Below, piece after piece: positions 8,653 through 17,770 of a stretch of 64,000 nt of DNA. A model generated the notes under the pieces. The model worked only from the letters and a program-made list of their open reading frames with translations, was not told the DNA's origin and did no database searches. The stretch's first letter is position 1; every line of letters begins with the position of its first letter. Made by a program: the position numbers and the translations under genes. Source of the DNA: Sphingomonas changbaiensis NBRC 104936 (GTDB lineage Bacteria > Pseudomonadota > Alphaproteobacteria > Sphingomonadales > Sphingomonadaceae); assembly GCF_000974765.1 (NCBI RefSeq), contig NZ_BBWU01000035.1, positions 1 to 64,000 on the forward strand, read 5' to 3'.

Positions 8653-9564
8653 ATGCCCCTTCCCACCCTCGCCATCACCGGCGGCACCGGATTTGTCGGC
8701 GCAACCCTCGTCCGTCATGCGGCGATGCGCGGCCATTCGGTGCGCGCACTCACCCGCAAGCCGCAATCGTCCGGTTCGAAGATCCGGTGGGTCGACGGCT
8801 CGCTCGACCAGCCCGAATCGCTCGTCCGCCTCGCCGTCGGCGCCGACGTCGTGATCCACGTCGCCGGCGCGATCAACGCCGCCGACCGCGCCGGCTTTCA
8901 GTCAGACAATGTGTTCGGGACGCTGAACATGGTCGAAGCCGCCAAGGCCGCCGGCGCGCGCCGCTTCATCCATGTCAGCTCGATGGCCGCGCGCGAGCCG
9001 GAGCTGTCCGACTATGGCTGGTCCAAGGCCCGTTCGGAGCAGGTGGTCGGCGCAAGCGGGCTCGACTGGACGATCGTGCGGCCGCCGGCCGTCTACGGCC
9101 CCGGCGACCGCGAGACGCTGGAGCTGTTCAAGATGGCCAAGCGCGGGCTCGTTTTCCTGCCCCCGCACGGCAAGCTTTCGGTGATCGAGGTCAGCGATCT
9201 CAGCCGTTTCCTGCTGACACTGATCAGCCATGAGGAAACACTTGGCGACACCTATGAGCCGGACGACGGCTATGCGCAGGGCTGGACCCACAAGCAGTTC
9301 GCCGAGGCGATCGGGGCCGCGGTCGGCCGCAGGCGTGTGACGACCCTGTCGGTGCCGCGCGGGCTGATGCGGGCCGGCGCGCGGATCGACCGGCTGGTTC
9401 GCGGCAAGCGCGCCAAGCTGACGCTCGATCGCGCCAATTACTTCAGCCATCCCGACTGGGTCGCCCATCGCCGCCCGCCGGCCGAGCTCTGGCGGCCGCA
9501 TATCGAGACGAATGCCGGGCTGAAGGCGACCGCGGTCGCCTACAGGGCGGCCGGCTGGCTCTAG
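8653..9564 (+). CDS. NAD(P)-dependent epimerase/reductase (extended SDR), possible ceramide reductase
   Basis: A 303-residue extended short-chain dehydrogenase. GGTGFVGATLV is the N-terminal dinucleotide loop and YGWSK near residues 119-123 is the YxxxK catalytic pair, with HVSSMAA supplying the Ser. It is of the complex-I NDUFA9-like group. In Caulobacter the ceramide reductase CerR is a protein of this group encoded beside serine palmitoyltransferase (recalled from the literature), and here the acp-spt pair begins less than 0.8 kb downstream. That makes CerR a reasonable but unproven assignment. Its TAG stop is supplied by the tip of an inverted-repeat element. Confidence 0.65.
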   Translation: MPLPTLAITGGTGFVGATLVRHAAMRGHSVRALTRKPQSSGSKIRWVDGSLDQPESLVRLAVGADVVIHVAGAINAADRAGFQSDNVFGTLNMVEAAKAAGARRFIHVSSMAAREPELSDYGWSKARSEQVVGASGLDWTIVRPPAVYGPGDRETLELFKMAKRGLVFLPPHGKLSVIEVSDLSRFLLTLISHEETLGDTYEPDDGYAQGWTHKQFAEAIGAAVGRRRVTTLSVPRGLMRAGARIDRLVRGKRAKLTLDRANYFSHPDWVAHRRPPAELWRPHIETNAGLKATAVAYRAAGWL

Positions 9565-9749
9565 GGTGTGTCCTCACATCCAGCACCGAGCGCGCCTCTG
9601 CAGGCGACCCCTCCGGGGCGGGGCGTCTTTTGGACCGTGGCGGCGTCGCTCGTCGGGCGCGATGTCCCACATCGCGTCCCTCCTCGCTCCTAGCCACAGG
9701 CCAAAATACGCCCCGTCACGCCGGTGCTGGGTATGAGGACACACCCTAG
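9561..9749. repeat. Nested inverted-repeat element, copy 1 (between convergent genes)
   Basis: Non-coding element with perfect 16-bp terminal inverted repeats: CTAGGGTGTGTCCTCA at 9561-9576 and its complement at 9734-9749; pairing continues inward for about 12 more bases with few mismatches. Inside is a 22-bp stem (9619-9640 with 9694-9715, about 19 of 22 paired) and a small GATGT/ACATC hairpin in the loop. The right half is about 80% identical to copy 2 at 16284-16553. The two CTAG tips provide the stop codons of both flanking convergent genes. It may act as a bidirectional terminator. Confidence 0.85.
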
Positions 9750-10282
9750 AGGTGGATCAGGTGCAGCCGGTCGACCGCGAAGGTCAGCACCGTCAGCACC
9801 ATGCCAGTCAGGAAAGTCCGGTAGGATAAGGCGAGAAACCGGTATTTCTTGCGCCGCAACACGTTGCCGTGCTGGTAGATGTCCCGCGCCATCGTGCGGT
9901 ACACCTCCTCTTCCTCCTGCATGTGCTCGATCAGCGTGTCGATATACTCTTCCTGGCCAAGCTGGGTGAACGAGCCGAAGAACAGCAGGTTGAGCGGCGT
10001 GCCGGGCTTGGGCCCGACCGCGGGCAGCACCGCCATCACCGCCAGCGCCGCGGAAGCGAGGGCAAAGGCGGCGAGCACCAGCATTTCCGGCGCGACATAG
10101 CCTTTCGACGTCTGGTTGAGGGTAATCGTGAACACGACGAAGGTGGCACCCATCAGGATGCTCGCCTTGGCGTCCGCCATGGCCGACAGCTGGACCTGGA
10201 TCTGCTGGGTCGTGCGGATCAGGTGAATCGCGTCGGGCGCGTAGCGTTTCTGCTTGGCTTCGTACGGCAAATGATCCCCCAT
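9746..10282 (-). CDS. PycTM-like (DUF5706 / Pycsar effector family) membrane protein
   Basis: A 178-residue protein (185 if the GTG at 10303 is used; neither start has a good ribosome site). The pattern QVQLSAMADAKASILMGAT followed by a membrane helix matches the DUF5706 family, now known to include PycTM, the membrane effector of Pycsar antiphage systems. A second hydrophobic hairpin (LVLAAFALASAALAVMAVLPAV) and a C-terminal helix (FLTGMVLTVLTFAV) follow, with an acidic region between. No PycC-type pyrimidine cyclase is encoded nearby, so an antiphage role is not supported; a housekeeping membrane role is possible. It converges on the reductase gene and ends in the repeat element. Confidence 0.7.
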   Translation of the reverse strand: MGDHLPYEAKQKRYAPDAIHLIRTTQQIQVQLSAMADAKASILMGATFVVFTITLNQTSKGYVAPEMLVLAAFALASAALAVMAVLPAVGPKPGTPLNLLFFGSFTQLGQEEYIDTLIEHMQEEEEVYRTMARDIYQHGNVLRRKKYRFLALSYRTFLTGMVLTVLTFAVDRLHLIHL

Positions 10283-10356
10283 GTTCAGTCGCGGCGCTGC
10301 CACCCTTCAGCCGCAATCCCTTGGCAAGTCGCGCCGAAGAGCATTAGGGGCCGCTC

Positions 10357-10599
10357 ATGTCCGACCGTCAAGAAATTGAAAAGACCGTCCGCCGCCTGAT
10401 CGAGCCGTTCAACAAGAAGGGCGTGGCGCTGACCGATTCGACCACCTTCGCAGGCGATCTCGAATGGGACAGCCTGACGGTGATGGACTTCGTCGCTGCC
10501 GTCGAGGACGAGTTCGACATCATCATCACGATGAACATGCAGGCGGAAATCGAAACCGTCGGCCAGCTGGTCGACGCGGTGGGCCGGCTGAAGGGCTGA
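10357..10599 (+). CDS. Acyl carrier protein (sphingolipid-linked)
   Basis: An 80-residue acyl carrier protein. WDSL places the phosphopantetheine attachment site at Ser39, with acidic helix II after it (DFVAAVEDEFDI). It lies 4 bases before the serine palmitoyltransferase gene, with which it forms an operon. In sphingomonads and Caulobacter a dedicated ACP next to spt is thought to deliver the acyl chain to SPT. It is therefore unlikely to be the general fatty-acid-synthesis AcpP, which normally lies in the fab cluster. Confidence 0.9.
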   Translation: MSDRQEIEKTVRRLIEPFNKKGVALTDSTTFAGDLEWDSLTVMDFVAAVEDEFDIIITMNMQAEIETVGQLVDAVGRLKG

Positions 10600-10603
10600 A
10601 TCG

Positions 10604-11860
10604 ATGACCGACAGTCTCCAGACAGCCGACGCGCCCGTTTTCGAGAGGATCGCGCCGGAGCGCGACCTGATGTCCAAATTCGACGGGCTGATCGCGGAGC
10701 GCCAGGCGCTGCTCGACAGCGGCGTGCGCGATCCGTTCGCGATCGTGATGGAGCAAGTGCTCTCACCCACCGAAGCGGTGATCCAGGGCAAGAAGACAAT
10801 CCTGCTCGGCACCTACAATTACATGGGCATGACGTTCGACCCGGACGTGATCGCGGCGGGCAAGGACGCGCTCGACACGTTCGGCTCCGGCACCAACGGC
10901 AGCCGGATGCTGAACGGCACGTTCCGCGACCATATGGAAGTCGAGCAGGCGCTGCGCGAGTTCTACGGCACCAGCGGCGCGATCGTCTTTTCGACCGGCT
11001 ACATGGCCAATCTGGGCATGATCTCCACCCTCGCCGGCAGGGGCGAGTACATCATCCTCGATGCCGACAGCCACGCCAGCATCTATGACGGCTGCTCGAT
11101 GGGCGCGGCGGAAATCGTCCGCTTCCGCCACAATTCGGTCGAGGATCTCGACAAGCGGCTGGGCCGGCTGCCGCCTGAGCCAGGCAAGCTCGTCGTGCTC
11201 GAGGGCGTCTATTCGATGATGGGCGATATCGCCCCGCTGAAGGAGATGGTCGCGGTCGCGAAGAAGCACGGCGCGATGGTGCTGGTCGACGAGGCGCACT
11301 CGATGGGCTTTTTCGGCGCCAACGGCCGCGGCGTCTACGAAGACCAGGGACTGGAAGGGGAGGTCGATTTCGTTGTCGGCACCTTCTCCAAGTCGGTCGG
11401 TACTGTCGGCGGCTTCTGCGTGTCGAACCACCCGAAATTCGAGGCGATCCGGCTGGCCTGCCGCCCCTATATCTTCACCGCTTCGTTGCCGCCGTCGGTG
11501 GTCGCGACCGCGGCGACGTCGATCCGCAAGCTTCGCCATGCCCACAACAAGCGCCAGCATTTGTGGGAGAATGCGCGGCGCGTGCATGACGGGCTGACGC
11601 AGCTCGGCTTCACGCTCGGCACCGACACGCCGCAATCCGCGATCATCGCCGTGATCCTGCCGACGCAGGAGCAGGCGGTCGGCATGTGGCAGGCGCTGCT
11701 GGAGCACGGGCTTTACGTCAACATGGCCCGTCCGCCGGCGACGCCCGCCGGCATGTATCTGCTGCGCTGCTCCCTCTGCGCCGAGCATACGGGCGAGCAG
11801 GTCGAACGGATCGTCGACATGTTCGCACAGGCCGGCCGCCAAATGTCCGTAATCCCTTAA
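10604..11860 (+). CDS. spt: Serine palmitoyltransferase
   Basis: A 418-residue, soluble, PLP-dependent alpha-oxoamine synthase that condenses L-serine with a palmitoyl thioester to 3-ketosphinganine, the first step of sphingolipid synthesis. TFSKSVGTVGGF places the PLP Lys at residue 263, and DADSHASIYDG places the ring-stacking His at 157. Both are two residues before the equivalents in the Sphingomonas paucimobilis enzyme (Lys265, His159), and the length is nearly identical (about 420). DEAHSMGFFG carries the PLP-nitrogen Asp. The upstream ACP is the likely partner. This gene is the strongest taxonomic marker of the window. Confidence 0.95.
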   Translation: MTDSLQTADAPVFERIAPERDLMSKFDGLIAERQALLDSGVRDPFAIVMEQVLSPTEAVIQGKKTILLGTYNYMGMTFDPDVIAAGKDALDTFGSGTNGSRMLNGTFRDHMEVEQALREFYGTSGAIVFSTGYMANLGMISTLAGRGEYIILDADSHASIYDGCSMGAAEIVRFRHNSVEDLDKRLGRLPPEPGKLVVLEGVYSMMGDIAPLKEMVAVAKKHGAMVLVDEAHSMGFFGANGRGVYEDQGLEGEVDFVVGTFSKSVGTVGGFCVSNHPKFEAIRLACRPYIFTASLPPSVVATAATSIRKLRHAHNKRQHLWENARRVHDGLTQLGFTLGTDTPQSAIIAVILPTQEQAVGMWQALLEHGLYVNMARPPATPAGMYLLRCSLCAEHTGEQVERIVDMFAQAGRQMSVIP

Positions 11861-11910
11861 CGGCGCTGGACAGCCGCCGTTCACGCCGCTTTGTTCATAG
11901 CGGCGTGGGG

Positions 11911-13911
11911 ATGGGTGAGATTTCAGGCCATGAGGTCGGGCAGGGCTCGATCAGCGTGCGTCGCGCACTGGCGATCGCGCTCGCCTTGATGGTCGCGGTC
12001 GGCCTGATCGCCCTCACCGTCTTCGTCACCAATTCCAGCCGCCAGCGCGACGAAGCGCTCGCCGCCCAGCGGCACAGCTTCGAAGTGATCATCCTCGTCC
12101 GCACGCTGCAGAGCACGATGGCGGAGGCGGAGCTGAGCCTCGGCCGCTACGTGGTCAACCTTCAGCCCGAGTTCGGACGGGTCTATGTCGACGATTGGCG
12201 GCGGGCCGGATTGGCGATCAATCGGCTTCGCGAAGTCACCCGCGAGAATCCGCAGCAGGCAGCGCTCGCCGCAAAGCTGCGCGCCTATTACGACCAGCGG
12301 GGGCGGCTGCTGTCGAGCGCGGCGCTTCGCACCCGCTACGACCAGAAGATCAGCGGCCTCGCCATTTTCGATCGGGCTGGCAAGGTCGCGAACCGCAAAG
12401 AGCTGAACGACACGCTCGATCGAATCATCGACATCGAGAATCGCGTTCTCGACGCGCGGATCAACCACGCCAACGCGACGCTCGACCAGTCGAACTGGGC
12501 GGCGACATTGCTGCTGGCCTTTGCGCTGCTCCTGGTCATCGGCGCGGGAGTGCTGGGCTACAGCGTGGTCCAGGCCGTCGCCGGGCGTCGTGCCGCGCGG
12601 CGGGACGCAGACGAAGTCGCGCGGCGCGCCGAAAATCTGGAAGAGGCTGTCGCCGCGCGTACGGCCGAGCTGCGCCGCGCCAACACTGCGCTGCTTGCCG
12701 AGGCGGCAGAGCGCGAATCAGCCGAGGCACAGCTCCGCCAGGCGCAGAAGATGGACGCGGTCGGCCAGCTAACCGGCGGTATCGCTCACGACTTCAACAA
12801 CATGCTGGCCGTCGTGATCGGTGGCCTGGAGCTGGCAAAACGCCGACTGACCGATGGCAGCGACGATGCCGGCCGCCACATCGAAAACGCAATGGAAGGT
12901 GCCAGTCGCGCGGCTGCGCTCACCCGGCGCCTGCTCGCTTTCGCGCGCGCCGAACCGCTTTTGCCCGAAGCCGTTTCGCCCGACGCGCTAATCGCTGGCA
13001 TGACGGACCTGCTCGATCGCACGCTGGGCGAGCGGATCAAGGTGCGCACCCGGTTCGCCAGCGCCGACTGGGCGGTGTGGGTCGACAAGCACCAGCTCGA
13101 AAACGCCCTGCTCAACCTCGCGGTCAATGCGCGCGATGCGATGGACGGGGATGGCACGCTGACCATCGGCACGGGCACGCGGATCGTGGGCGAAGGCGAA
13201 CTCGGCGACATGCGGGCCGGCGATTATGTCGCGATCTCGGTCGCCGATACCGGCTGCGGCATGGACCGGACGGTGCTCGACCGCGTGTTTGAGCCGTTCT
13301 TCACGACCAAGCCGGTCGGCAAGGGCACCGGCCTGGGCCTCAGCCAGATTTTCGGGTTCGTCCGCCAGTCGCTGGGCGAAATCGTGATCGCGTCGCAGCC
13401 AGGCATCGGCACGACCGTCACACTGCTGCTGCCGCGCTTCAGCGGAGTGAAGCGCATCGCGCCGACGGAGCTGCCGCCGTCCCGCCTGCCAGTTCGGCAG
13501 CGGATGGAAGAACAGGCGACGATTCTTGTCGTCGAGGATGATCCCCGCGTGCTGAACGCAACAGTCGAGGCGCTCGCCGAGCTTGGCCATCACCCGATCC
13601 CGTGCGCGACGCCCGACCGGGCCGAAGCGCTGATCGACGCCCATCCCGACGTGCGGCTGGTCCTGTCCGACGTGGTGATGCCGGGGACGACCGGCCCCGA
13701 GCTGATCGCTTCGCTCCAGCCGCGTCACCCCCATCTCGGTATTCTGTTCGTGACGGGCTATGCCGGCGAGATCGACGAGGCGGCGGCGTTCGGCGGGCAC
13801 GGCGTGCTGCGCAAGCCGTTCACGATCGGTGCGCTGTCCGGCGCCGTGCAGGCGGCGCTCGCCAGGACTAGCGGACCGCACCCTTTCGAAGCAGCCGCGG
13901 CAGCAGAATGA
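11911..13911 (+). CDS. Hybrid sensor histidine kinase with receiver domain
   Basis: A 666-residue membrane sensor. Transmembrane helices at about 19-39 and 196-222 bracket a helical periplasmic domain of about 155 residues, CHASE3-like in size. A coiled coil follows (about 230-280), then the HisKA site GGIAHDFNN with phospho-acceptor His293 and an HATPase domain (NLAVNARDAM, DTGCGM, GTGLGLSQ). A C-terminal receiver domain has Asp587 in LSDVVMPG and Lys in RKPF. It lacks an output domain, so it passes phosphate to an unknown partner. It starts 50 bases after spt and may be co-transcribed. Its 3' end overlaps the convergent Tam41-like gene by 44 bases. Confidence 0.88.
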   Translation: MGEISGHEVGQGSISVRRALAIALALMVAVGLIALTVFVTNSSRQRDEALAAQRHSFEVIILVRTLQSTMAEAELSLGRYVVNLQPEFGRVYVDDWRRAGLAINRLREVTRENPQQAALAAKLRAYYDQRGRLLSSAALRTRYDQKISGLAIFDRAGKVANRKELNDTLDRIIDIENRVLDARINHANATLDQSNWAATLLLAFALLLVIGAGVLGYSVVQAVAGRRAARRDADEVARRAENLEEAVAARTAELRRANTALLAEAAERESAEAQLRQAQKMDAVGQLTGGIAHDFNNMLAVVIGGLELAKRRLTDGSDDAGRHIENAMEGASRAAALTRRLLAFARAEPLLPEAVSPDALIAGMTDLLDRTLGERIKVRTRFASADWAVWVDKHQLENALLNLAVNARDAMDGDGTLTIGTGTRIVGEGELGDMRAGDYVAISVADTGCGMDRTVLDRVFEPFFTTKPVGKGTGLGLSQIFGFVRQSLGEIVIASQPGIGTTVTLLLPRFSGVKRIAPTELPPSRLPVRQRMEEQATILVVEDDPRVLNATVEALAELGHHPIPCATPDRAEALIDAHPDVRLVLSDVVMPGTTGPELIASLQPRHPHLGILFVTGYAGEIDEAAAFGGHGVLRKPFTIGALSGAVQAALARTSGPHPFEAAAAAE

Positions 13912-14713
13912 TCGCGCCGAGCAGCGGGTGCCGCCGCTGCCACGGCTTCACGACAATGCCGGCGCCGGCGTGCCGGTTGATCTTCCACGCGAGATAATCG
14001 ACGCCGCCGGCAAAAGTCAGGCTCGCCTTCGCCAGCCGCACCAGCGTCATCAGCTTGCCCATGCGGCGGAGGCTGCGCCAACGTGCGGCGGAATAGAGCG
14101 GCATCGGCGTAATCGCGCTGCCGATCCGCTCGTAGCGTGCAGGATCCCAGTCGACGATCGCGCCGGGCCGGTCGCCGCGTTCGGCGCGAAGCTCGGCGCT
14201 GTACGTCAGCGTGAACCCGGCGCGCCAGCGCTCCAGCAGATCACCCTTCACAGGCGCGAGCGACAGCAATGTCGCGGGCGCGCGTGCAACCGCCTGCACG
14301 GAAGCGTCCCGCGCCGCATCGTCCGCAGCCCAGACCAGCCGCGCCGGCTGTGCGAACCGCGCCCACACGGACACGGTGCTCGCCTCCGGCCCGGTCAGGC
14401 GCATGAAGTCGGCTTCGCTCAACACCGCATACTTAGCGGCGACGCCGTTTCGCTCGAAGGGGAACACGTTCGGCGGGATCAGTAGGTTGGCCCAGGCCAG
14501 CCAGCGCTTGCCATACGCTTCGCGATAGTCGCGGACGATCAGGTAGAAATCGAGCATCTGCCCGTCGATCGCGCCGGTCCTGAGGCACGATCCGTAGAAA
14601 AGCACCGCGCGCGCGCCGGGATAGCCGGCCGCAATCGCTGCCGCCGCATCCACAGCGCGCGGATCGACCGGCTGCGCCAGTTCGTCCGCAATCAACTGTT
14701 CCAGGTCGCCCAT
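13868..14713 (-). CDS. Tam41-like phosphatidate/ceramide-phosphate cytidylyltransferase candidate
   Basis: A 281-residue protein. FYGSCLRTG (about 38-46) and MLDFYLIV (about 53-60) match the GS...MLDF signature of the Tam41/Mmp37 mitochondrial CDP-diacylglycerol synthases, and the Lys-Tyr-containing segment NGVAAKYAVLS fits their conserved LIKYGVIS region. Tam41 makes CDP-lipid from CTP and a phosphatidate. Here the gene follows a DAGK-type lipid kinase by 11 bases, so the natural reading is that it activates the kinase product. In a sphingolipid locus this could be ceramide phosphate, which is inference. The alternative is an orphan nucleotidyltransferase of unknown target. Confidence 0.6.
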   Translation of the reverse strand: MGDLEQLIADELAQPVDPRAVDAAAAIAAGYPGARAVLFYGSCLRTGAIDGQMLDFYLIVRDYREAYGKRWLAWANLLIPPNVFPFERNGVAAKYAVLSEADFMRLTGPEASTVSVWARFAQPARLVWAADDAARDASVQAVARAPATLLSLAPVKGDLLERWRAGFTLTYSAELRAERGDRPGAIVDWDPARYERIGSAITPMPLYSAARWRSLRRMGKLMTLVRLAKASLTFAGGVDYLAWKINRHAGAGIVVKPWQRRHPLLGAIILLPRLLRKGAVR

Positions 14714-14724
14714 TCGGGCCGAAA

Positions 14725-15687
14725 CTAAGCCGCCAGCTTCAGGAACGGAACCGGCGCGGTGGTGCGGAGCACGATCGGGTTGCCGGCGCTGGTCTCGAAC
14801 AGCTCGCCGTCAAGGATGACGTTCGAGCGGTCTCCCGCAATCTCGATCTCGTCGCCCTGCTCGATATGCACGCCCTGGAGCCGGTTGCGCCCGAGCCGAC
14901 CGCGGATGCTCGCCGCTAGCGCGCGGAGCAGCGTCACCGGCCCCTGCTCGACCGCCATCAGCTTCAGCCGCCCCGTGTCGCTTTCGGTCTTGCTGCCCAG
15001 CAGCAACCGCTCCAGCGTGGTCACGATCAGCAACGTGAAACGCCCGGAAAACTGGCCGCCGCGCTTCAGCGACACGCTCACCGGCGCCGGGCGCGGCGGC
15101 AGGAAGGCCGCGCGAACGCCGAGCACCACCGACACCAGCACCGCCAACGCGGTCAGCACGTGACTGAGCCCGTTGGGAAGCCCGAGCGGATAGATCTTGG
15201 TCCGGCAGAACAGGATCGAATCGGCCAGCCCCGCGCCGCCGAGGAACATGCCCAGCACCGGCCGGCTGTCGCGCCCGTCCGAAAGCGCGATCAGTTCGCG
15301 TTGCACGGTGTGCGGCGCCAGATCCGATTGAGCGAGCTCGACGATCCTGGCGAGCGCGTCGAGCGGGTCGCCCTGCGCCCCCAGGTCGAGCGCGATCAGG
15401 TTGGTCTTGCCGTTGGGCAGCACGGCGACCGGCGGCGGTGTCTCGCCGAAATATTTTCCGCCATGCAGCTCCGTCAGCGCTGCCTGCACCGACCCGTCGC
15501 CGCCATTGATGACGAGGACTTTCGGGCTCACCCGGGCGATCGTCCGCATCGCATCGGGAATCTGGCCGATCTCTTCGACTTCGTAGTGAAAGATGTCGGG
15601 ATTTCGTGCGCAATAGGCGCGGACACGCGGCAGCAGGGCGCGGTTGCCCGTCGAGCGCGGATTGGAAAGGAGCGCGACGCAGGCCAT
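14725..15687 (-). CDS. Diacylglycerol/ceramide-type lipid kinase
   Basis: A 320-residue lipid kinase with the DAGK catalytic fold. The N-terminal SNPRSTGNR is the usual phosphate-loop start, and NGGDGS at residues 61-66 is the nucleotide-binding GGDGT-like motif. VLPNGKTN and the C-terminal beta domain (DEIEIAGDRSNVILDGE) are typical. Caulobacter encodes an evolutionarily distinct bacterial ceramide kinase of this fold beside its sphingolipid genes (recalled), and spt is only 3 kb away. Ceramide kinase is therefore a good candidate, although a YegS-like or DgkB-like activity cannot be excluded. The ATG shares one base with the upstream gene's TGA. Confidence 0.72.
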   Translation of the reverse strand: MACVALLSNPRSTGNRALLPRVRAYCARNPDIFHYEVEEIGQIPDAMRTIARVSPKVLVINGGDGSVQAALTELHGGKYFGETPPPVAVLPNGKTNLIALDLGAQGDPLDALARIVELAQSDLAPHTVQRELIALSDGRDSRPVLGMFLGGAGLADSILFCRTKIYPLGLPNGLSHVLTALAVLVSVVLGVRAAFLPPRPAPVSVSLKRGGQFSGRFTLLIVTTLERLLLGSKTESDTGRLKLMAVEQGPVTLLRALAASIRGRLGRNRLQGVHIEQGDEIEIAGDRSNVILDGELFETSAGNPIVLRTTAPVPFLKLAA

Positions 15688-16184
15688 CAGCTCTCCCGCG
15701 CCGGGCCGATCGACAGGCCGTTCCGGTACAGCAGCCGAACGTCCACCGGCCGGACGCCGCGTCCAACCTCGATCGCCACGTCGTTATAGCTGGGCTTCAG
15801 GTGGAACAGCGAGAGCTTCGGATTCCGCGAAAAGCCACCCCCGTCGGACCAGCCGGACTTGCCATTGCCGTCCATGTCGTGACGGACTGCGACGGCATAG
15901 GCGCCCGGCGCCGGCAATGCGACGCACACCTCCATGCGACCCGTCTTCGCGACCGGCACGTCGATGCGGCGCAGCTTCTTGCCTTTGGCAAGGAAGTCGG
16001 CCGGATTGGAGCCATAGATCTGGACGCGGAGCGTTCCCTCGCGCTCCTTGAATCCGTCGACGCGCACCAGCACCGCGGTATCGCCGCGCGCGCAGGCCTC
16101 GCTGTCGCCATACATTGCCGCCGCCGGCGCGCTCCATGCGGCCGTCGCCAGACCGGCAACGCAAGCAACCCAAACTTTCTTCAT
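15687..16184 (-). CDS. DUF2141 exported protein
   Basis: A 165-residue protein with a signal peptide (VWVACVAGLATAAWSAPAAA). The mature part is a DUF2141 domain: a compact beta-sandwich with RVQIYGS, VALPAPGAYAVAVRHDMDGNG (the DxDxNG loop may bind calcium) and GGGFSRNPK. Function is unknown. It is the first gene of an operon with the lipid kinase and the Tam41-like gene (TGATG overlap), so it may take part in the same lipid pathway on the periplasmic side. Starts at 16190 and 16184 are both possible; the second is better placed for an AGAGATGG ribosome site. TATAAC at 16209-16204 could be the -10. Confidence 0.75.
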   Translation of the reverse strand: MKKVWVACVAGLATAAWSAPAAAMYGDSEACARGDTAVLVRVDGFKEREGTLRVQIYGSNPADFLAKGKKLRRIDVPVAKTGRMEVCVALPAPGAYAVAVRHDMDGNGKSGWSDGGGFSRNPKLSLFHLKPSYNDVAIEVGRGVRPVDVRLLYRNGLSIGPARES

Positions 16185-16283: not shown

Positions 16284-16553
16284 AGGGTGTGTATTCAGTG
16301 GCCATGCCGAGCGTGATCGCCTGGAGAGGCGCGCTGGCGAGAAGCGCAGCGCAGACGCGTAGCCGAAGCTACGCGCAAGCAAGCGACGCGGCCAGCGCGC
16401 CTCTCCAGGCGACCGCGTCGCGGCGGGGCGTTTTTTGGCCTGTGGAGGGCGTCGCTCCTCGGTCACGATGTCTGCACATCGCTCTCTCCTCGCTCCTACC
16501 CACAGGCCAAAACTCGCCCCGTCACGCCGGCATGGCCGCTGAATACACACCCT
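16284..16553. repeat. Nested inverted-repeat element, copy 2 (upstream of lptF)
   Basis: Second copy of the element at 9561-9749. Terminal inverted repeats of 26 bp (16284-16309 with 16528-16553) have one mismatch and begin AGGGTGTGTATTCAG. The inner 22-bp stem is 16424-16445 with 16500-16521. This copy has an extra left section: a perfect 22-bp inverted repeat (16317-16338 with 16391-16412) enclosing an 8-bp hairpin with a CGAA loop (16356-16375). It fills most of the 380-base gap between the DUF2141 gene and lptF and ends 11 bases before the lptF ATG. Confidence 0.85.
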
Positions 16554-16564
16554 GAAATTCGAAG

Positions 16565-17770
16565 ATGTTGACCGCCGTAGACCGATACCTCGCCCGGCTG
16601 ATCGCCGTCCCCCTGTTCGCCACGCTCGTGATCGCGGCGATGCTGCTCGTCCTCGACAAGATGCTCCGGCTGTTCGACTTCGTCGCAGAGGAAGGCGGCC
16701 CGGTCAGCGTCGTATGGCGGATGCTCGCGAACCTGCTGCCGGAATATCTGTCGCTGGGGATCCCGATCGGGTTGATGCTCGGCATCCTGCTCGCATTTCG
16801 TCGGCTCGCCACCTCGTCGGAGCTCGACGTTTTTCGCGCGGTGGGCCTCAGCTACGGACGATTGCTGCGCGTGCCCTATCTCTTCACGATCGCGCTGGCG
16901 CTGCTGAACCTCGCGATCGTCGGCTTCATCCAGCCCAAGGCGCGCTACGCCTATGAAGGATTGCAGTTCGAGCTGCGCTCCGGCGCGCTCGGGGCCTCGA
17001 TCAAGGTCGGCGAGTTCACCAGCCTCGGCCCGCAGATGACGGTCCGGATCGAGGAAAGCCATAAATCGGGCGCCGACCTGTCGGGCATTTTCGTGCGTGC
17101 GGAGAACCGGCAGGGCCGCAATCTCGCGGTGACCGCAGAAAAGGGCAGCTTCCTGCGCACCGACGATCCGAACGTCATCATCTTCCGCCTGAAGAACGGC
17201 ACGCTCGTCCATAACGAGCCCGGCTTCAAGGTGCCGCGCGTGTTGAGCTTCACCTCGCATGACCTGCCGATCGACCTGCCCAAGATCGAGCGCTTCCGCA
17301 GCCGCGGCGGCAAGGAGCGCGAGCTGACGATTCCGGAGCTGGTCCGCATCGGCCATAATGCGAAAGTCCCGCTGCCGCAGCGCAACGAGAGCCGCGCCAA
17401 CTTCCACTTTCGCGTAGTGGAGGTGGCGATGATGTTCCTGCTGCCCCTGCTCGCCGTCGCCCTTGCCGTGCCGCCGAAGCGGTCGACCTCGGCACTGGGC
17501 GTCTTCCTCTCGATCGTGATGGTCGTCACCTATCACAAGGTGAACGAATATGCGCAGGGCATGGGAGCGCTCGGCCGCATCGATCCGCTGATCGCGCTTT
17601 GGGTGCCGTTCGTGATCTTCGCCGCGCTGATCTGGTGGCTGTTCTATCAGCTCGCCTTCGTTCCCGGCGGTCAGCCGATCGGCGGGCTGGAGCGCGTCTT
17701 CGCCAAGGCAGGCGCCGCGGTCCGCCGCTGGCTGCGCATCCGCCGGCGACGGCCCGAGGTGATCGCGTAA
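16565..17770 (+). CDS. lptF: LPS export ABC transporter permease LptF
   Basis: A 401-residue YjgP/YjgQ-family permease. Three N-terminal helices (including FATLVIAAMLLVLDKMLRL), a periplasmic beta-jellyroll of about 150 residues, and three C-terminal helices give the LptF/LptG topology. With LptG and the LptB ATPase it extracts lipopolysaccharide from the inner membrane; in sphingomonads lacking LPS it may move other envelope glycolipids. The ribosome site is weak. The gene sits right behind repeat copy 2, so its promoter must lie upstream of, or inside, that element. lptG follows after 3 bases. Confidence 0.93.
   Translation: MLTAVDRYLARLIAVPLFATLVIAAMLLVLDKMLRLFDFVAEEGGPVSVVWRMLANLLPEYLSLGIPIGLMLGILLAFRRLATSSELDVFRAVGLSYGRLLRVPYLFTIALALLNLAIVGFIQPKARYAYEGLQFELRSGALGASIKVGEFTSLGPQMTVRIEESHKSGADLSGIFVRAENRQGRNLAVTAEKGSFLRTDDPNVIIFRLKNGTLVHNEPGFKVPRVLSFTSHDLPIDLPKIERFRSRGGKERELTIPELVRIGHNAKVPLPQRNESRANFHFRVVEVAMMFLLPLLAVALAVPPKRSTSALGVFLSIVMVVTYHKVNEYAQGMGALGRIDPLIALWVPFVIFAALIWWLFYQLAFVPGGQPIGGLERVFAKAGAAVRRWLRIRRRRPEVIA

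What the first reader, a model, noticed from the sequence alone, without database searches (positions are those of the whole stretch)
13868..16184. Lipid kinase coupled to a Tam41-type cytidylyltransferase and an exported DUF2141 protein
The kinase (GGDGS) and a Tam41-like gene (GS...MLDF...KY) are 11 bases apart, and the DUF2141 stop overlaps the kinase start. A bacterial kinase followed by a mitochondrial-type CDP-lipid synthase suggests synthesis of a CDP-ceramide-like intermediate, which would be new chemistry if real.
Basis: inference. Interest (0 to 1): 0.75.

Follow-up and report, generated by a model that had tools for sequence, protein, structure and literature searches.

The report
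Sphingolipid kinase–cytidylyltransferase gene pair (cpgB–cpgC)
These bacterial genes very probably phosphorylate ceramide and then activate it with CTP to build a charged sphingolipid for the outer membrane; the same gene pair is already known to be needed for such a lipid in Caulobacter, but the activation step has never been shown in a test tube.

Summary
In a Sphingomonas genome (nearest named relative S. horti), a DUF2141 protein, a DAGK-type lipid kinase and an unannotated protein lie head to tail on the minus strand inside a ceramide gene cluster (cerR, acp, spt, lptF2, lptG2, flippase, desaturase, cerS). The unannotated protein does have the Tam41 fold: the five best PDB matches to its AlphaFold2 model are all Tam41 (VIA-align Z 17.1, against 7.7 for the next family).

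The pair is not a new pathway. By gene order it is cpgB–cpgC of the Caulobacter ceramide-phosphoglycerate (CPG) pathway. CpgB is a proven ceramide kinase. CpgC is genetically required for CPG by an "unidentified mechanism", and an NTP-activated ceramide was already proposed in 2024.

New here: the CpgC family has the Tam41 fold (predicted). All 34 CpgC-bearing genomes of 289 Alphaproteobacteria have serine palmitoyltransferase. CpgA and CpgD occupy exactly the same 19 of these; 15 genomes, including this one, have CpgC without them. This fits CTP activation of ceramide-1-phosphate (CDP-ceramide) as the first head-group step, independent of CDP-glycerate. CDP-ceramide itself remains inferred, and the enzyme that adds the head group here is unknown. 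DUF2141 is genuinely linked; its role is unknown.

The parts
13868..14713 (-). cpgC-like Tam41-fold nucleotidyltransferase (P0001), proposed CTP:ceramide-1-phosphate cytidylyltransferase
   Evidence: AF2 model pLDDT 88; Foldseek top five hits all Tam41, E 1e-6 to 5e-5; VIA-align Z 17.1/13.5/13.2 for Tam41, next family 7.7; profile best PDB hit Tam41 E 7e-4
14725..15687 (-). cpgB-like lipid kinase (P0002), proposed ceramide kinase, GGDGS motif
   Evidence: Pfam DAGK_cat E 6.8e-13; directly upstream of the NTase in nearly all relatives; position matches CC_1160 in the collinear Roseomonas cluster
15687..16184 (-). exported DUF2141 protein (P0003), role unknown
   Evidence: Pfam DUF2141 E 9.5e-22; upstream of the kinase in 47 of 51 loci with room and beside it in 10 of 10 Sphingobium genomes where the kinase has moved; predicted beta-sandwich, no clear PDB relative
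10604..11860 (+). serine palmitoyltransferase (spt)
   Evidence: NCBIfam NF047603 801.6 bits, cut-off 670
10357..10599 (+). sphingolipid-type acyl carrier protein
   Evidence: PP-binding E 1.1e-9, directly upstream of spt, as in Caulobacter
8653..9564 (+). cerR-like NAD-dependent epimerase/reductase
   Evidence: 35% identical to the CerR-position protein of a Pseudomonas plasmid cluster, E 1e-41
16565..17770 (+). second LptF (lptF2), divergent from the DUF2141-kinase-NTase operon
   Evidence: Pfam LptF_LptG 216 bits
17774..18868 (+). second LptG (lptG2)
   Evidence: Pfam LptF_LptG 257.6 bits
18865..20379 (+). oligosaccharide-flippase-family protein
   Evidence: Pfam Polysacc_synt E 1.4e-7; same position in collinear distant clusters L144, L147, L159
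20369..21556 (-). fatty acid desaturase/hydroxylase
   Evidence: Pfam FA_desaturase E 1e-25; 38% identical to the desaturase in the Diaphorobacter plasmid cluster
21555..22706 (+). ceramide synthase-like N-acyltransferase (cerS position, CC_1154)
   Evidence: 41% identical over 392 residues, E 1e-79, to the protein at the CC_1154 position in Roseomonas
11686..13911 (+). CHASE3 hybrid histidine kinase between spt and cpgC, convergent with cpgC (44-base overlap)
   Evidence: Pfam CHASE3, HisKA, HATPase_c, Response_reg; present in 48 of 80 Sphingomonadales loci

Best explanation
The pair is the cpgB-cpgC core of a ceramide head-group pathway. [quoted passage not shown] The Tam41-fold protein then transfers CMP from CTP to the phosphate of ceramide-1-phosphate, giving CDP-ceramide and pyrophosphate (inferred), working at the inner membrane surface through its very basic C-terminal helices (16 K/R against 1 D/E in residues 209-281; the membrane role is inferred). 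A further enzyme then exchanges CMP for a small head group to give an anionic ceramide phosphodiester such as CPG (inferred). LptF2/LptG2 and possibly DUF2141 move the lipid towards the outer membrane (inferred). This genome has no detectable CpgA or CpgD, so it should stop at a single head group and not make CPG2.
For: Tam41 fold with a wide margin. D55 is the invariant acidic residue of the GS...D motif, with a non-acidic residue (mostly Tyr) at the usual second-acid position, matching the report that Tam41 keeps only one of the three NTase acids (PMC11646218). Gene order in the Roseomonas plasmid, metallophosphoesterase, CAP-PT, DAGK, this family, spt, acp, reproduces CC_1158-CC_1163 as described in PMC11324152. 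34 of 34 CpgC genomes have SPT (Fisher p 2e-38) and 23 of 34 have it within 3 kb. The genome already has a CdsA for CDP-DAG. In Caulobacter, CPG needs CpgB and CpgC but not CpgA or CpgD (PMC11324152, PMC12275187), so the first head group does not depend on CDP-glycerate. CpgA and CpgD occupy the same 19 genomes, nested inside the CpgC set.
Against: No enzyme activity is shown. P0001 itself hits no Pfam family, and only 2 of 26 family members hit PF09139. No dedicated CDP-alcohol phosphotransferase for the next step was found: the third one in this genome is not linked to CpgC. CpgB also phosphorylates diacylglycerol in vitro (PMC10331486), so the lipid substrate could be broader.
Confidence: 0.68

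Rival explanations
1. The Tam41-like protein is an ordinary CDP-diacylglycerol synthase, and the kinase makes phosphatidate from diacylglycerol; the pair recycles glycerolipids.
For: All characterised Tam41 enzymes make CDP-DAG from phosphatidate; Caulobacter CpgB also accepts diacylglycerol in vitro (PMC10331486).
Against: CpgC occurs only in genomes with serine palmitoyltransferase (34 of 34) and usually beside it; the genome has its own CdsA; deletion of CC_1161 in Caulobacter abolishes CPG, and cpgB deletion does not change phosphatidate.
Confidence: 0.12
2. CpgC does not make CDP-ceramide; it joins ceramide-1-phosphate to an NTP-activated (phospho)glycerate, or attaches glycerate directly, using its nucleotidyltransferase fold.
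For: Published schemes leave the mechanism open and one drew direct glycerate attachment; a CofC-like NTP transferase (CC_1153) is present in 9 of 15 CpgC clusters that lack CpgA and CpgD and could supply an activated glycerate.
Against: The CDP-glycerate maker CpgD is not needed for CPG (PMC12275187) and is absent from 15 of 34 CpgC genomes; Tam41 enzymes bind CTP and catalyse CMP transfer to a lipid phosphate; the CC_1153 mutant still makes CPG.
Confidence: 0.15
3. The protein has lost catalysis and acts as a scaffold or regulator of the kinase.
For: Only one of the three classical NTase acidic residues is present.
Against: Tam41 itself works with one; residues Y40, G41, D55, K94, W117, R119, Q122, P123, E174, R176 and E178 are invariant across 31 diverged sequences, which is expected for an active enzyme.
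Confidence: 0.05

Closest known systems
Caulobacter crescentus cpgB-cpgC (CC_1160-CC_1161, ccna_01218-01219)
   Same: A lipid kinase next to a CDP-DAG-synthase-like protein within an spt/acp/cerR/cerS/lptF2/lptG2 gene set; needed for ceramide phosphoglycerate.
   Different: This genome lacks detectable CpgA and CpgD, has DUF2141 in the operon, and puts a histidine kinase between spt and cpgC. Sequences were not compared directly.
Tam41 (S. pombe 6ig2/6ig4; Firmicutes 7ecd)
   Same: NTase domain plus following helical domain, single conserved acid, GS...D, KY and RF.QP motifs, basic C-terminal helices.
   Different: About 15% identity, mostly outside the reach of the Pfam model PF09139, strict link to sphingolipid genes, own conserved C-terminal region (W-K-x-x-R-H ... 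P-W-Q-R-R-H-P).
CpgD (CTP:phosphoglycerate cytidylyltransferase)
   Same: Also a cytidylyltransferase of the CPG2 pathway.
   Different: Different family (NTP_transferase); activates glycerate, not the lipid; absent from this genome at E 1e-15.

Membership tests
Tam41 family (mitochondrial-type CDP-DAG synthase) | Tam41 fold (NTase domain with following domain) | tested here: met
   Foldseek ranks 1-5 all Tam41; VIA-align Z 17.1 over 212 residues with 7ecd, rmsd 3.1; next family Z 7.7. The C-terminal part beyond residue 234 is not covered by solved Tam41 structures.
Tam41 family (mitochondrial-type CDP-DAG synthase) | Sequence profile match to PF09139 | tested here: inconclusive
   0 hits for P0001; 2 of 26 family members hit, best E 8.9e-7; the reverse profile search finds Tam41 as the best PDB hit, E 7e-4
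Tam41 family (mitochondrial-type CDP-DAG synthase) | GS motif with a single catalytic acid, KY and RF.QP motifs | tested here: met
   Y40, G41, D55, K94, R119, Q122, P123 invariant, S42 and Y57 above 90%; aligned to YGS/IDF/KY/RFQKP of 6ig2
Tam41 family (mitochondrial-type CDP-DAG synthase) | Makes CDP-DAG from CTP and phosphatidate | not testable with these tools
   needs an enzyme assay
CpgC of the ceramide-phosphoglycerate pathway | Gene order: next to the ceramide kinase, within the spt/cer/lpt gene set | tested here: met
   the order in Roseomonas matches CC_1153-CC_1163
CpgC of the ceramide-phosphoglycerate pathway | Direct sequence orthology to CC_1161 | not tested
CpgC of the ceramide-phosphoglycerate pathway | Required for CPG in vivo | not testable with these tools
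   shown for Caulobacter only (PMC11324152)
CpgB-type ceramide kinase | DAGK_cat domain with GGDG motif | tested here: met
   GGDGS in the translation
CpgB-type ceramide kinase | Phosphorylates ceramide | not testable with these tools
   shown for Caulobacter CpgB (PMC10331486)
Full CPG2 pathway | CpgA and CpgD present | tested here: not met
   No match in this genome at E 1e-15 for either, nor for CpgA at E 1e-10

The most novel reading that the evidence does not exclude
CpgC is a CDP-ceramide synthase: a Tam41-fold enzyme that evolved to activate ceramide-1-phosphate, giving bacteria a CDP-lipid route to sphingolipid head groups parallel to the CDP-DAG route for phospholipids. In genomes like this one, with CpgB and CpgC but no CpgA or CpgD, a housekeeping CDP-alcohol transferase could finish the lipid and so give a head group other than diphosphoglycerate.
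Probability: 0.5. Interest if true: 0.72.

Novelty: new member of a known kind. Interest (0 to 1): 0.5.

Why it matters
How ceramide-1-phosphate becomes ceramide phosphoglycerate is stated as unknown in the 2025 and 2026 CpgD papers. A Tam41 fold for CpgC, and its co-occurrence with SPT independently of CpgA and CpgD, turn that question into one assay: CTP plus ceramide-1-phosphate. CDP-ceramide would be a new lipid intermediate in the synthesis of outer-membrane lipids that, in Caulobacter, support survival without LPS and determine polymyxin sensitivity.

Tried and rejected
(1) A dedicated CDP-alcohol phosphotransferase for the step after CpgC: this genome has three PF01066 proteins; the extra one (C16) occurs in 4 of 289 genomes and does not follow CpgC. 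(2) Unrecognised conserved neighbours: clustering unannotated ORFs from 34 regions around CpgC gave nothing shared by more than 3 genomes. (3) Direct PF09139 search of the genome: no hit. (4) Finding Caulobacter itself by name: the one scan of named genomes returned only Sphingomonadales among the 80 loci kept. (5) Solved relatives of the kinase by single-sequence search: none at E 0.01. (6) DUF2141 as an LptC/LptA-like part: its model is a beta-sandwich with only weak matches (pilotins, FN3-like, best Z 8.1) and no Lpt protein in the list, which neither supports nor excludes it. (7) Promoters and terminators: no more than shuffles give. (8) A literature link between DUF2141 and sphingolipids: none in the held library.

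Full report
What is there. The kinase start overlaps the DUF2141 stop by one base, and 11 bases separate the kinase from the third gene. The nearest named genome is Sphingomonas horti, 86% identical in the third protein.

Surroundings. A distant alphaproteobacterial family (loci L144, L147, L159) has nearly the same order: cerS, hydroxylase, flippase, lptG, lptF, then DUF2141-cpgB-cpgC, then spt, acp, cerR.

The third protein has the Tam41 fold. A profile of its relatives finds S. pombe Tam41 as the best match in the whole PDB sequence set (E 0.006 with 26 sequences, 7e-4 with 31). The AlphaFold2 model (mean pLDDT 88) matches Tam41 in the first five Foldseek ranks, the best being the Firmicutes enzyme 7ecd with CTP-Mg (E 1e-6). 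VIA-align gives Z 17.1, 13.5 and 13.2 for three Tam41 entries, against 7.7 for aminoglycoside nucleotidyltransferases. The D of the GS...D motif is invariant, while the usual second acid is a Tyr or other non-acid, as reported for Tam41, which keeps one of three acids. The C-terminal 73 residues carry 16 K/R and one acidic residue, in line with the basic membrane-binding C-terminus of Tam41.

Identity in known terms. On a Roseomonas megaplasmid the annotated order is NTP transferase, cerS-like, sterol desaturase, LptG, LptF, HIT, DUF2141, metallophosphoesterase, CDP-alcohol phosphotransferase, DAGK, this family, (GT39), spt, acp. Apart from three inserted genes this is the order of CC_1153 to CC_1163 as described for Caulobacter. 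The kinase is therefore at the CpgB (CC_1160) position and the Tam41-like protein at the CpgC (CC_1161) position. CpgB is a ceramide kinase in vitro (PMC10331486). CpgC is required for CPG; its mechanism is called unidentified in 2025 and 2026 (PMC12275187, PMC13228409). PMC11324152 already noted a CDP-DAG-synthase-type InterPro domain in CC_1161 and proposed an NDP-activated ceramide. The word CDP-ceramide occurs in no paper of the held library.

Co-occurrence. In 289 alphaproteobacterial genomes CpgC is in 34 and SPT in 40, and every CpgC genome has SPT (34 of 34 against 6 of 255; p 2e-38, relatedness of genomes not corrected for). SPT lies within 3 kb in 23. CpgA and CpgD (strong matches) are in 19 genomes each, the identical 19, all within the CpgC set. 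Fifteen genomes, including this one, have CpgC without either. In 130 Sphingomonadaceae genomes CpgC is in 101 and CpgA (strong) in 38, of which 37 have CpgC. Thus CpgB-CpgC is a core module and CpgA-CpgD an add-on, as the Caulobacter mutants suggest (first and second phosphoglycerate). In ten Sphingobium genomes the kinase with DUF2141 and lptF2 has moved away from cpgC, yet all ten keep it.

Mechanism. Since CPG forms without CpgD and hence without CDP-glycerate, the activated partner in the first step should be the lipid. A Tam41-fold enzyme acting after a ceramide kinase gives CTP + ceramide-1-phosphate to CDP-ceramide + PPi. This step is inferred, not shown. A plain CDP-DAG role is less likely because the genome has CdsA and CpgC is confined to SPT genomes. 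The enzyme that exchanges CMP for the head group is open: no dedicated candidate follows CpgC, so PgsA, PssA or an unrecognised enzyme must be considered, and the head group in CpgA/CpgD-less genomes could differ from phosphoglycerate.

DUF2141. The linkage is real: upstream of the kinase in 47 of 51 Sphingomonadales loci with room, beside the moved kinase in 10 of 10 Sphingobium genomes, and in the clusters of six sampled genomes and of Roseomonas. Its model is a confident beta-sandwich without a clear relative. A periplasmic part in lipid export beside LptF2/LptG2 is a guess.

Limits. Whole-genome searches for CC_1153 and aasR in this genome were not run. No activity can be shown by computation.

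Verdict. True observation, correct fold call, known pathway. The value lies in giving CpgC a testable chemistry.

Noticed in passing
window 16286-16555: A 270-bp insert with 26-nt inverted ends in the divergent DUF2141/lptF2 promoter region, exactly absent from S. horti (L031). Related pieces lie at window 9589-9724 and in contig C38 of the same genome (92%): a dispersed MITE-like repeat.
   Followed up: partly
L112 (NZ_CP065408) and L114 (NZ_CP073662): Sphingolipid/CPG gene clusters lie on IncP-type plasmids of Diaphorobacter (conjugative, with mer genes) and Pseudomonas (with sul1 and an integron), so the pathway looks transferable between proteobacterial classes.
   Followed up: no
L141, L146, L148, L152, L154, L164, L169, L170, L172: A CC_1153-like (CofC/MobA-type) NTP transferase is kept in 9 of 15 CpgC genomes that lack CpgA and CpgD, so it may serve the first rather than the second head-group step.
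   Followed up: partly
L112:7791-8999, L140, L142, L143, L162, L173: A second CDP-alcohol phosphotransferase, distinct from CpgA, sits in several of the clusters; function unknown.
   Followed up: no
window 9746-10303 (-): A protein with the Pycsar-effector-like PycTM domain lies between cerR and acp, and a homologue is found in 28 of 80 related loci; possibly a housekeeping membrane protein rather than defence.
   Followed up: no
window 11686-13911 (+): A CHASE3 hybrid histidine kinase between spt and cpgC, conserved in 48 of 80 Sphingomonadales loci, may sense envelope state.
   Followed up: no
G304:C1:3141205-3142275: The only Sphingomonadaceae genome of 130 with a strong CpgA but no CpgC match.
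   Followed up: no
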